Source: Trissonchulus latispiculum | Lineage: Eukaryota; Nematoda; Enoplea; Enoplida; Ironidae | Assembly: GCA_030248195.1 (NCBI GenBank) | Contig: JASAND010011160.1 | Coordinates: 1-64,000, forward strand | DNA length: 64,000 nucleotides | Direction of reading: 5' to 3' | Shown: positions 10,401 to 13,400 of the stretch, piece by piece | Layout of the letters: each line of letters opens with the position of its first letter | How positions within the stretch are numbered: position 1 is the stretch's first letter | The notes under the pieces: model-generated | What the model was told of the DNA's origin: nothing | What the model saw: the letters and a program-made list of their open reading frames with translations, nothing else | Database searches by the model: none | Program-made: the position numbers and the translations under genes

Positions 10401-13400
10401 CATATGCAGGTATATGTAGTATGGTAGGAACTCGTGCCGGCGTAGACCTACGTCGCACTCTTTCTATTAGACTAGGCGCAGATGCTGGCGGACAGGGAGG
10501 TGGGAGAATGACCATTTCCTGCTCGTCTGAGTCCGGGTTATTATTCGAACTGCCGTTTGGACTGCTGCGCTTCCGCTTCCGGAATCTTAACATCAAGGCT
10601 CTTGAAGTTGAGCGCCTTCGTTTGTGTGCCCACCTTGTAAAGTGTGGCCACGAGCGTGGTAGGTTGAATGTAAGTCCGTCTCTGATGTTATTTGGGCAGC
10701 AGTGTAGTAACAAGAAGCTTAGTGTTACGTAGGTACACACTAGGAATACCCATAGTTGCCATGGACTAACAGCGAATCCATGAAGAAATCCAAAGAATCC
10801 TTTATTCATTATTCCCGTAACCACTCCTTGGGCTACTTGTTTTGGAGATCTTCGAGTAGTGCGATCGCTGAGTTCCTGTAGGATCTTTTGTTGGTGCTGT
10901 AAACCTCCGATGATTTCGTTCAAGCTGATTTCTGAAGTGATTTCAGAGAAATTATACATAACGATTTGGCTAAAGATGGTAGGTTGGAAACTCCAAGGTT
11001 CAGTAGTATTCCAGGAGAATGCTCTGAGCTCCGGAATGTGTGGTAATGGTGTTAAGTCTCCTGTTTCGCTTTGGTATGTGTACATTTTCCCGTGCAGTTG
11101 CACTGGGATCTCTCTGTTTAATCTGCAATCGACTGGATAAGGATTCTTATGCACGATATTGGTGACCGGATCGAGATAGGCTGAATATTCCTGTGAATTT
11201 AACAGGAATTTGATTGGGATTTCCATGCTGCATGTCTCGTTCATCGGGTCGAAATGATAAAACCCCTTTTCGATTTCTTGGCATGGCCATGTTGATATAA
11301 CATTCCCGCCTGCTCGTGCAATGATGTCATTACGACCTAAGATCGCTCTGATGGCTAGTGTTGGGTTTGCCATCATATCTGCCTTAAGGACTTCCATAAT
11401 TGTTGCCATCGAACGGCAGGCAGCGTTCATTGCCTGTTTAAAGGCGAAGTTTAGGTTTCTCTCAAGTTTAAACTCTTGTGCTTGTAGTGATGAAGCCATC
11501 AAATCGGTAGTCACGATCCCATTATTGATAGCCCACTGTTTGAGCTGAGGTCCTACTTCTTCTGTTTTCTGCAGTCTAGCCATCAGTTGTTCTGGAGTCG
11601 TATAGTTGGATGTAGACCTCTTAGTTTTGTTGATTTGTGGGATGATTCGGACGGGGATACCTTGATCTGTGAGCTGGATAGTCCGGCCAACACAATCTTT
11701 GGCATATTTCCCGCTTTTGAAGGTGAGCGCTAGCTGATCATTGTCTGCTAACCAGTTAGTTCCCCACATGTCTCCCGTTAATGTTTGCCATTCGAGAAAT
11801 TCACATCGCTCGTCCTGGTTTGGTTCCCAAAGTAAGTAGCTTCCGTCACGAAGTTGGCATCCTCCGGATCGGTAGTCGCAGTGTTCGACCCATCCAGCCG
11901 TTGATTCCATGCTGTCAGTGCTATGTCGTTTGTAGACGAATGCCTCGTACATAAAACAATTCGTGGCAGTGTAAGTGTGCCAATAACAGCAGTGCATTCC
12001 TCCTCCGGACCATTCGTAGTTTACCTTGTTGTCAGTCTGCCATAAGCCACCCCGTAAGGTGAGAGGTCCAGCGTCGCACTGGTGGAATCTTCGCATTGAT
12101 TCGCATTCGGTTCCTGTTACTCGTAGATCATGCTTTTCTTCCTTTTTTAAGTGATGAGTCGCGAAAAAGTACGTGAACGTTTGGACTGTCTGCTTTACAA
12201 CGGTACATTTCCACGCCTTTGATTTGTATTTCACGTAGTTTCTTTTATAGAGAGTAAGTTCTACTGTTTCTAGGTCTCGTCGAGCGGGATTTGCTGCTGA
12301 ACTGCACTGAAGTCGTCCTGGTAGTCGCCATAAGGCTCGCCCTTGCTCGGTTTGGCAGACCATCGGTCCGCTTGCCATTTCATTGATGCTTCGAACAGAC
12401 GTGACAGGGGTTATTAGGCAGACAGCAATAAGTAGTAACAGTAGTAGTTTTGGGAGATAGCCGCCTATGAATTTGACTAGTGGTAGATCTGAACCTTTCG
12501 GTCGTTCCGTTTCCTTGTTAGCTTTATGAATCTTTATTTGTTGGCTTCGTTTCTTCTGTCGAGGTTTCATTCTCACGGACTTGTTATCGCTAATTTTCTC
12601 GGTGTGTTCAGGTTCATGGTCTAGCACTGGCGTGGCATTTGCGGTAGTGATCACATCAGGAGTTTTTGTATCTTCCGCGTGATCATTATGTCTGCTGGAC
12701 TGATTATCAATCGGTATAGGCAAGACACTTATGCTTCCCACGAAGTCAGAGTATTGGTTTCGTAATAGCTCCTCATTCTGTTCTGTAAGCATCTTGATTG
12801 TTTCCTGTAAATCTGTAACCTCTGTTGGAGCTGCATCATTCTGTATGTACTCCGTAGTGTTTGTACTGACAGCGTAGGCACGTGGATTTGTTTGATTGCG
12901 TGACGCTCCAGTTGACCGGTTTGTACGATTGACGCCATTATTGCGCCAGCTTGGTTGGTTAGCCTGGTTTTGACGCCAGTTGGTAGTGCTACTGTTAGAT
13001 CCTTGTGCCTCTCGGTCGCGTTTTCGTTTTCGGCAGTTAATAACAAAATGACCTGGTTTTTTACAATAATGGCAGATAATACGGCTGTCGGTAGTCCAGC
13101 GCCGGTCGGTTGACCGAAAATTGGGTGCTCGCCCTTGCTGATGTGGTTGAGATGGAGCTTGTGGCCTCTCCATCAAACCGAGGACATAGCCGCTTTGGCG
13201 TTGTTGATCCATGGTGAGTTTCTGTAGTTTGTCGTTGATTTCTTTGAATGCTTCTTTCCAGGCCTCTGAATTAGTGGTTTTTCCGGTGGCTACGGCTTCT
13301 ACGTGGCCGGAAGGTACAGTTCCTGAGGGGCTTAAGCCAGCTGTTAGATATTCTCCTGCTTCAATGAGCTTAGCGTATTTAAGTGCATCTTCGAATGTCT

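What the first reader, a model, noticed from the sequence alone, without database searches (positions are those of the whole stretch)
10690..12470. Envelope-like glycoprotein embedded between Gag and protease in one frame
Seen directly: a single 1891-codon frame runs Gag, zinc knuckle, hydrophobic signal, Cys-rich glycosylatable ectodomain with KTKR, membrane anchor, basic tail, then DTGS protease and RT. Known: retroviruses and errantivirus-type elements place env downstream of pol and express it by splicing. Inference: the topology works as a polyprotein (Gag in cytosol, ectodomain in the lumen, protease-RT back in cytosol), with signal peptidase and a furin-like cut releasing the parts. I do not know of a described element with this order.
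Basis: partly seen in the sequence, partly recalled or inferred. Interest (0 to 1): 0.92.

Follow-up and report, generated by a model that had tools for sequence, protein, structure and literature searches.

The report
Envelope fused between Gag and Pol

Summary
On the minus strand one 1891-codon frame (14388-8713) runs Gag, zinc knuckle, signal peptide, Cys-rich ectodomain with KTKR, membrane anchor, basic tail, DTGS protease and RT, in a Ty3/gypsy element with an 806-bp LTR and AATG target duplications. It is not a private insertion. Of 24 copies fetched, 23 show Gag capsid or zinc knuckle upstream and 22 protease downstream. Of 40 RT matches scored, 37 have the segment on the expected side, 1 is untestable, 2 show none in 3.3 kb. 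Four copies keep one frame open from Gag into integrase. The ectodomain is strongly constrained (omega 0.02-0.03, near RT, tighter than Gag). It matches Pfam's Monjiviricetes fusion family above cut-off; a low-confidence model still ranks herpesvirus glycoproteins first. Class III envelopes in retroelements are known; the order gag-env-pro-pol in one frame was not found in ten literature searches, but the most relevant paper was not held. Topology (internal signal, Pol as the cytosolic tail of Env) is inferred. The window copy is defective.

The parts
6119..15197 (-). LTR retroelement copy, flanked by AATG target-site duplications (15198-15201 and 6115-6118)
   Evidence: the sequence shows TG...CA ends and the 4-bp repeats
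14392..15197 (-). 5' LTR, 806 bp, TGTAA...TTACA
14370..14387 (-). primer binding site just after the LTR; resembles the 3' end of a tRNA-Gln (tRNA string recalled, 4 mismatches in 24 bases)
13963..14388 (-). N-terminal Gag region (residues 1-142), conserved as protein but without any in-frame ATG
13129..13962 (-). Gag capsid-like region (residues 143-420)
   Evidence: weak PDB match to an Arc2 protein, E 0.025
13027..13077 (-). CCHC zinc knuckle (residues 438-454)
   Evidence: (weak, E 0.17) and the sequence CHYC..GHFVINC
12730..12810 (-). short conserved block in the linker (residues 527-553, LQETIKMLTEQN..QYSDFVGSI), with the only Met kept between zinc knuckle and signal peptide
12391..12450 (-). 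predicted internal signal peptide (residues 647-666)
10756..12390 (-). class III-like envelope ectodomain (residues 667-1211)
11065..11493 (-). stretch matching Pfam PF24664 (residues 966-1108), also BDV_G and Glycoprotein_B
11617..11628 (-). furin-like site KTKR (residues 921-924)
10699..10755 (-). membrane anchor (residues 1212-1230)
10237..10698 (-). basic tail/linker to protease (residues 1231-1384), predicted cytosolic
9895..10188 (-). aspartic protease, DTGS (residues 1401-1498)
8731..9210 (-). reverse transcriptase (Pfam match, residues 1727-1886); the frame ends in a stop at 8713
7939..8571 (-). RNase H, separate frame in this copy
6950..8011 (-). integrase, separate frame in this copy, end lost
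6415..6973 (.). inverted copy of LTR sequence (reverse complement of 14639-15197, 559 of 559 identical)
6119..6411 (-). rest of the 3' LTR, direct copy of 14392-14684, 292 of 293 identical

Best explanation
This is a Ty3/gypsy retroelement family with one open frame that runs Gag, an envelope-like glycoprotein predicted to be a class III fusogen, protease and RT (in some copies also RNase H and integrase), so Env and Pol are likely made as one Gag-Env-Pol polyprotein. Inferred steps: Gag is translated first and stays in the cytosol. The internal hydrophobic signal then sends the ectodomain into the ER. Signal peptidase would free Gag, perhaps leaving it with a hydrophobic C-terminus. Furin would cut the ectodomain at the basic site. 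The anchor stops transfer, so protease-RT-RNase H-integrase stay in the cytosol as the tail of Env. Pol would then enter particles attached to the envelope protein, and the element's protease would release it during maturation. The fusogen would let particles enter new cells, for example germ cells. Shown here: order, single frame, conservation, selection, class III similarity. Not shown: expression, processing, particles, fusion.
For: Order: of 24 fetched copies, 23 show capsid or zinc-knuckle sequence upstream of the segment (the other, L028, the linker) and 22 show protease downstream (L026 and L029 show only the tail). By RT search, 37 of 40 scored matches, the window included, have it on the expected side. 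The 24 plus the window fall into 12 groups at over 97% env identity. Single frame: N-terminal Gag into integrase open in L012, L014, L016, L022; capsid to protease open in 7 of 24, NC to protease in 8 of 24; linker to RT open over all 3.3 kb in L039, L041, L042 (L041 and L042 are 99% alike in Env). In these no stop lies between env and protease, so Env cannot end by itself without a cut. Selection: ectodomain omega 0.02-0.03 in the 7 of 10 pairs with an estimable dS, against 0.04-0.07 in capsid, 0.07-0.18 in anchor-tail and 0.17-0.45 in linker. Class III: all 7 aligned members match PF24664 (best 7.5e-9); the 22 best Foldseek PDB rows are herpesvirus glycoproteins, 21 of them titled gB; of 15 BFVD rows with E at most 0.001, all 12 named ones are viral glycoproteins, including chuvirus-like, rhabdo-like and gB. 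All 16 ectodomain Cys are kept in L039, L041, L042 and P0002 (44-82% identity), and a basic motif is kept at the cleavage site while its flanks diverge. Outside this genome's hits, P0003 has Env fused in frame to a DTGS protease at 44% Env identity.
Against: No RNA or protein data: a spliced or internally initiated Env-Pol message is not excluded. No in-frame ATG exists in the first 142 residues, so the start of translation is unexplained. AlphaFold models are poor (mean pLDDT 28.4 and 34.7); only 3 PDB rows reach E 0.001 and query TM-scores in the fold searches are about 0.1, so the fold match rests on local features. Sequence matches to solved gB are weak (E 0.007-0.016 for the window copy, 0.12-0.21 for L030, none up to E 1 for P0002 or the A1 profile). 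More distant members fall slightly below Pfam's cut-off (24.4-25.3 against 27 bits). In P0002 the protease part is degenerate, and P0003 reads WARR at the cleavage position. Most fetched copies are broken somewhere in the frame. Two RT loci show no Env in the 3.3 kb upstream (L044, L045), though also no Gag there. dS is above 1 in many pairs, so omega values are rough.
Confidence: 0.66

Rival explanations
1. Env is made from a spliced or internally initiated message that starts in the linker (Met533) and reads Env-protease-RT-RNase H-integrase; the full-length RNA serves mainly for Gag.
For: Drosophila iERVs make Env from spliced RNA (PMC12992720, passages). Met533 is kept in 9 of 9 aligned copies that cover it, within a conserved block.
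Against: No invariant AG lies in the linker (residues 480-666) of 8 aligned copies; the invariant GTs there are Val codons. Env would still be fused to Pol, since no stop separates them in the open copies. Splice sites that shift between copies would escape this test.
Confidence: 0.2
2. The env segment is an in-frame cassette that is spliced out of some messages, which then encode ordinary Gag-Pol; unspliced RNA encodes Gag-Env-Pol.
For: It would solve how to make Gag-Pol without a membrane step; linker and tail on both sides are faster-evolving than the ectodomain. Formally, invariant GTs (residues 402, 449, 550, 555) and one invariant AG in the tail (residue 1280) exist.
Against: Each of those dinucleotides sits in a conserved Val or Ser codon, and by eye none has a good donor or pyrimidine-tract context.
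Confidence: 0.08
3. The glycoprotein no longer fuses membranes; it only anchors Pol and particles to internal membranes.
For: No functional test exists; the architecture alone would tether Pol to membranes.
Against: The basic cleavage motif, the ectodomain Cys and the ectodomain sequence are under strong constraint, as expected for a working fusogen.
Confidence: 0.1
4. A chance fusion or a private insertion of a viral or host gene in this one copy.
For: None found.
Against: About 40 places in this genome, 12 groups among 25 compared, same order; related Env-protease fusion P0003.
Confidence: 0.01

Closest known systems
Anakin (BEL/Pao elements of mosquitoes with a chuvirus-like glycoprotein; PMC7642597, passages seen)
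   Same: LTR retroelement with a class III, chuvirus-type glycoprotein, multi-copy
   Different: BEL/Pao backbone; here a Ty3/gypsy backbone with Env inside the Gag-Pol frame. The passages seen state a position downstream of the polyprotein for Roo, Tas and Cer-7; for Anakin itself I saw no stated position
Env-carrying gypsy elements (errantiviruses) with type III fusion glycoproteins (PMC13172572, passages; Chary and Hayashi 2025, eLife 108449, not held, not seen)
   Same: Ty3/gypsy element with a class III envelope
   Different: The passages seen give no gene order for them; Drosophila elements in PMC12992720 use a spliced env (passages). Whether the unseen paper includes gag-env-pol elements is unknown
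Cer-7 (herpesvirus-derived envelope, as stated in the introduction of PMC7642597)
   Same: herpesvirus-related envelope in a retroelement
   Different: Env downstream of the polyprotein, BEL/Pao backbone
Cer1 (PMC10309623, passages)
   Same: Ty3/gypsy-type element without a stop between gag and pol
   Different: Its extra gene (CERV) lies downstream of pol, is spliced and is a nuclear RNA-export protein, not a glycoprotein
Structural polyproteins of alphaviruses and flaviviruses (recalled)
   Same: Cytosolic capsid followed in frame by an internal signal and a lumenal glycoprotein; works-like comparison only
   Different: Not reverse-transcribing; no kinship claimed

Membership tests
Ty3/gypsy (Metaviridae) | RT closest to Ty3; order PR-RT-RNase H-integrase | tested here: met
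   RT best solved matches are 4ol8 (3e-55) and the Ty3 polyprotein 7q5b (2.1e-54); RNase H and integrase Pfam matches; order seen in copies. Integrase matches PFV (4.1e-27) better than Ty3 (1.9e-22). No tree was built
Ty3/gypsy (Metaviridae) | LTRs TG...CA and short target duplication | tested here: met
   806-bp LTR, AATG duplication in the window copy. For the L016 copy the flanks printed show no clear duplication
Class III viral fusion glycoprotein | Sequence family match | tested here: met
   PF24664 30.9 bits, cut-off 27; 7 of 7 members match at E 0.01 or better; L039, L041, L042 slightly below cut-off
Class III viral fusion glycoprotein | Five-domain fold with central trimeric helix | tested here: inconclusive
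   Model confidence too low; Foldseek ranks gB first by local features, query TM about 0.1
Class III viral fusion glycoprotein | Mediates membrane fusion through two fusion loops | not testable with these tools
   needs an experiment
Errantivirus / retrovirus gene order | env downstream of pol | tested here: not met
   Env lies between Gag and protease in each fetched copy that shows both sides; the frames X and Y downstream of integrase, seen in two copies, have no meaningful Pfam match
Errantivirus / retrovirus expression | Env from a spliced RNA | not testable with these tools
   no RNA data; no convincing conserved splice sites seen
BEL/Pao (Anakin) | BEL/Pao protease-RT | tested here: not met
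   RT is Ty3-like; no BEL/Pao-specific Pfam family among the hits (which families are BEL/Pao-specific is recalled)

The most novel reading that the evidence does not exclude
A lineage of retroviruses with a genome plan of its own, gag-env-pro-pol in one frame plus two extra genes downstream, in which a class III fusogen is born inside the polyprotein and Pol rides into the particle as the cytosolic tail of its own envelope, with no frameshift and no splicing needed to set the ratio.
Probability: 0.45. Interest if true: 0.92.

Novelty: new variant of a known kind. Interest (0 to 1): 0.82.

Why it matters
Retroviruses and the env-bearing retrotransposons that I know of put env after pol and usually make it from a spliced RNA. 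An element that keeps Env in the middle of the Gag-Pol frame would be a different answer to three linked problems: how to express Env, how to package Pol and how to sort parts across a membrane. It would liken retroelements to the strategy of alphavirus- and flavivirus-like polyproteins. It also adds a Ty3/gypsy case of a fusogen related to those of chuviruses, bornaviruses and herpesviruses, with well-preserved and diverged copies that allow tests.

Tried and rejected
Protein homologue search of residues 640-1330 of the whole frame: none of 4977 candidates. With alignments A1 and A2: the same two proteins both times, P0002 and P0003. Viral contigs: 42 pattern matches, no relative. Prokaryote genome contigs: 37 pattern matches, no relative. 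AlphaFold on 7 and 9 sequences: mean pLDDT 28.4 and 34.7, not usable as structures. PDB search with profile A1 found no gB; single sequences did, weakly, for the window copy and L030, not for P0002. NCBIfam gave nothing for Env. A splice-site scan gave no convincing pair. Rejected: private insertion, host protein, part of Gag. A search of this genome for other members of PF24664 and for distant Env proteins was asked for but did not complete (see below).

Literature: ten searches. 'gag-env-pol' had 0 occurrences in the 20 papers listed of 471. 'between gag and pol' occurs in 6 of the 25 papers listed of 783; I looked up the phrase in 4 of these 6, and none concerns an envelope there. 'upstream of pol' gave 8 papers; passages of 2 were seen, neither about an envelope. 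Passages were also read in PMC7642597, PMC12440569 (with abstract), PMC13172572 and PMC12992720. I read no paper whole. Chary and Hayashi 2025 is not held.

Full report
What is there. The window lies in an unnamed 734-Mb assembly (G000, 21732 contigs). On its minus strand, 15197-6119, is an LTR retroelement. The 5' LTR is 806 bp (TGTAA...TTACA), and the copy is flanked by AATG on both sides. A primer binding site follows the LTR; it looks like the 3' end of a tRNA-Gln (recalled; 4 mismatches in 24 bases). One open frame of 1891 codons (14388-8713) holds Gag, a zinc knuckle, a hydrophobic segment, a Cys-rich region with KTKR, a second hydrophobic segment, a basic tail, a DTGS protease and RT.

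The copy in the window is defective. Pol meets a stop at 8713, RNase H and integrase lie in other frames, and integrase runs into an inverted LTR piece (6973-6415), then the rest of the LTR (6411-6119). The two pieces match the 5' LTR at 559 of 559 and 292 of 293 positions, and the target duplication is intact. So the rearranged form was probably made before or during integration, and recently (inference).

The order is a family trait. A DNA search of the genome with the segment gave 44 matches at about 40 places, from 40 scored of 104 candidates, 75-100% identical. I fetched 24 of these places besides the window. Gag capsid or zinc-knuckle sequence lies upstream in 23 of 24; the other, L028, shows the linker. 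Protease lies downstream in 22 of 24; in L026 and L029 the stretch shows only the tail, and one search places RT further along on the same strand of those contigs. RNase H and integrase follow in most stretches that reach so far. With the window, these copies fall into 12 groups at more than 97% env identity, so independent lineages are fewer than copies.

The reverse test starts from RT. A search with the RT domain gave 40 scored of 144 candidates, the window included. By position, 32 of 40 have an env match from then on the expected side (C10968 and C16316 with extra sequence between; some only partial env matches). I fetched the region upstream of the other eight. Five carry Env in the same place at 72-89% identity per aligned piece (L038-L042; L040 with an internal deletion), one contig ends there (L043), and two show no Env in 3.3 kb (L044, L045). 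L044 shows protease with no Gag before it; L045 shows neither. In the 24 plus 8 stretches examined I saw no copy in which Gag joins protease directly.

The frame is kept in the better copies. In L012, L014, L016 and L022 one frame is open from N-terminal Gag into integrase (2410-2622 codons in the stretch); L012 and L016 stay open through all of the integrase that the window copy has. Capsid to protease is open in 7 of 24, NC to protease in 8 of 24; the rest are broken somewhere. In L039, L041 and L042 the frame is open over the whole fetched 3.3 kb from before Env to RT (L041 and L042 are 99% alike). No stop separates Env from protease in these. Linker and tail differ in length between the ten open copies aligned but stay in frame.

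Selection. In codon comparisons between copies (Nei-Gojobori counts, ten pairs), the ectodomain has dN 0.01-0.05 at dS 0.4-2.0, omega 0.02-0.03, in the seven pairs where dS could be estimated. RT gives 0.01-0.02, capsid 0.04-0.07, protease 0.03-0.15, anchor plus tail 0.07-0.18, linker 0.17-0.45, N-terminal Gag 0.20-0.50. In the three pairs with L030 most dS values are saturated, and dS above 1 makes the others rough. Env is thus among the most constrained parts of the element.

What the segment is. Pfam places it in PF24664 (Monjiviricetes_fusion) at 9.2e-8, above the curated cut-off, with weaker matches to bornavirus G and herpesvirus gB. All seven aligned members match these; three more distant ones fall just below the PF24664 cut-off. 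The five best solved-structure matches of the window copy are gB, each weak (E 0.007-0.016), and other queries gave less or nothing. AlphaFold gave only low-confidence models. A Foldseek search with the better one nevertheless returned herpesvirus glycoproteins in all of its 22 best rows, 21 titled gB; three rows reach E 0.001, the best 2.8e-5. In the viral library, 15 rows had E at most 0.001; 12 bear names and all 12 are viral glycoproteins, among them those of Keturi virus, Croada virus, rhabdo-like viruses, an entomopoxvirus and gB. Query TM-scores were 0.08-0.14 in these rows, so this is local similarity along 150-757 alignment columns, not a superposed fold. I conclude class III with good but not structural confidence.

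Sites. The 16 ectodomain Cys of residues 678-1088 are all kept in L039, L041, L042 and P0002; P0003, a partial sequence, keeps the six it covers. The cleavage site reads KTKR in the window copy, RERR in L041 and L042, RSKR in L039, RTKR in P0002 and WARR in P0003, while the sequence around it diverges; within alignment A1 it is K-x-K-R in 7 of 7. The signal segment keeps its hydrophobic core but not its letters.

Relatives outside. P0002 (961 aa) and P0003 (580 aa) are 43-44% identical in Env. P0003 continues in frame into a DTGS protease; P0002 continues into a degenerate protease-like part. Their sources are unnamed NCBI contigs, and I could not reach them; whether they come from another host is not known.

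How it may work. In the open copies there is no independent Env C-terminus: wherever translation starts, Env leads into protease. The most economical model is a Gag-Env-Pol polyprotein with an internal signal peptide. Basic residues precede the signal in the window copy and follow the anchor, as expected if both flanks are cytosolic (positive-inside rule, recalled). Signal peptidase would separate Gag, furin would cut the ectodomain, and Pol would remain as the cytosolic tail of Env until the protease acts. This would deliver Pol to the particle by way of Env. All of this is inference.

Rivals. A spliced or internally started Env-Pol message is the main one. The only Met kept between zinc knuckle and signal is residue 533, in a conserved block (9 of 9 copies that cover it). 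In eight aligned copies no invariant AG lies in the linker, and the invariant GT positions are Val codons; one invariant AG lies in the tail, in a Ser codon. Sites that shift between copies would be missed.

Unexplained. The frame opens before the primer binding site and has no ATG for about 142-157 codons in the window and in the four best copies, yet this part is conserved as protein. Translation may start at a non-AUG codon or after a splice from an upstream exon; insect elements with a short exon upstream of gag are described in PMC12992720 (passage).

The rest of the element. Downstream of integrase, the L016 and L009 elements share two reading frames before the 3' LTR: X (255 and 253 aa, 56% identical) and Y (51% over 107 residues). 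Neither has a Pfam match above noise; X has no PDB match, Y was not searched there. The 3' LTRs were found by similarity. The L016 LTR pair is 94.2% identical over 910 columns with 22 mismatches; its flanks show no clear target duplication. From these positions the element is about 12-13 kb.

Known or new. Class III envelopes in retroelements are known: Anakin (PMC7642597), Cer-7 (stated there) and gypsy elements with type III glycoproteins (PMC13172572), all from passages. The order gag-env-pro-pol in one frame did not appear in the searches listed under Tried and rejected. The most relevant survey (Chary and Hayashi 2025) is not held, so prior description cannot be excluded. I file it as a new variant of a known kind: a Ty3/gypsy env-bearing element with a different genome plan.

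Noticed in passing
window 6119-6973: 3' end of the copy: integrase end lost, inverted LTR piece then the rest of the LTR, nearly identical to the 5' LTR and inside an intact AATG duplication; looks like an aberrant cDNA that was integrated.
   Followed up: partly
L033:1233-2000, L034:1355-2116, L033:2409-3269, L034:3-626: Two conserved accessory reading frames (X, 253-255 aa; Y) between integrase and 3' LTR, without a meaningful Pfam match; absent from the window copy.
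   Followed up: partly
window 13963-14388; L012, L014, L016, L022: N-terminal Gag region conserved as protein but without an in-frame ATG; the frame opens before the primer binding site.
   Followed up: partly
window 12730-12810: Conserved block LQETIKMLTEQN..QYSDFVGSI in an otherwise fast-evolving linker; may be a spacer helix, a cleavage site or a start.
   Followed up: partly
window 48924-53789 and 55539-60399: About 6.6-kb tandem duplication, 96-100% identical in the repeats listed, with an RT-bearing 226-aa frame in each unit (51094, 57699).
   Followed up: no
window 16932-18415, 36237-37123, 2116-2984: Repeat arrays with a unit of about 148 bp at three places.
   Followed up: no
window 16088-16272 / 16620-16804: 185-nt inverted repeat, listed as 100% complementary, with a 347-nt spacer, possibly a fold-back or non-autonomous DNA transposon.
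   Followed up: no
window 47604-47902 / 48338-48636: 299-nt inverted repeat, 92% complementary, next to the tandem duplication.
   Followed up: no
P0002: In this relative the protease active-site region is altered although the later part (LLGTEFFRRAGP) remains; a broken copy or a lost function.
   Followed up: no
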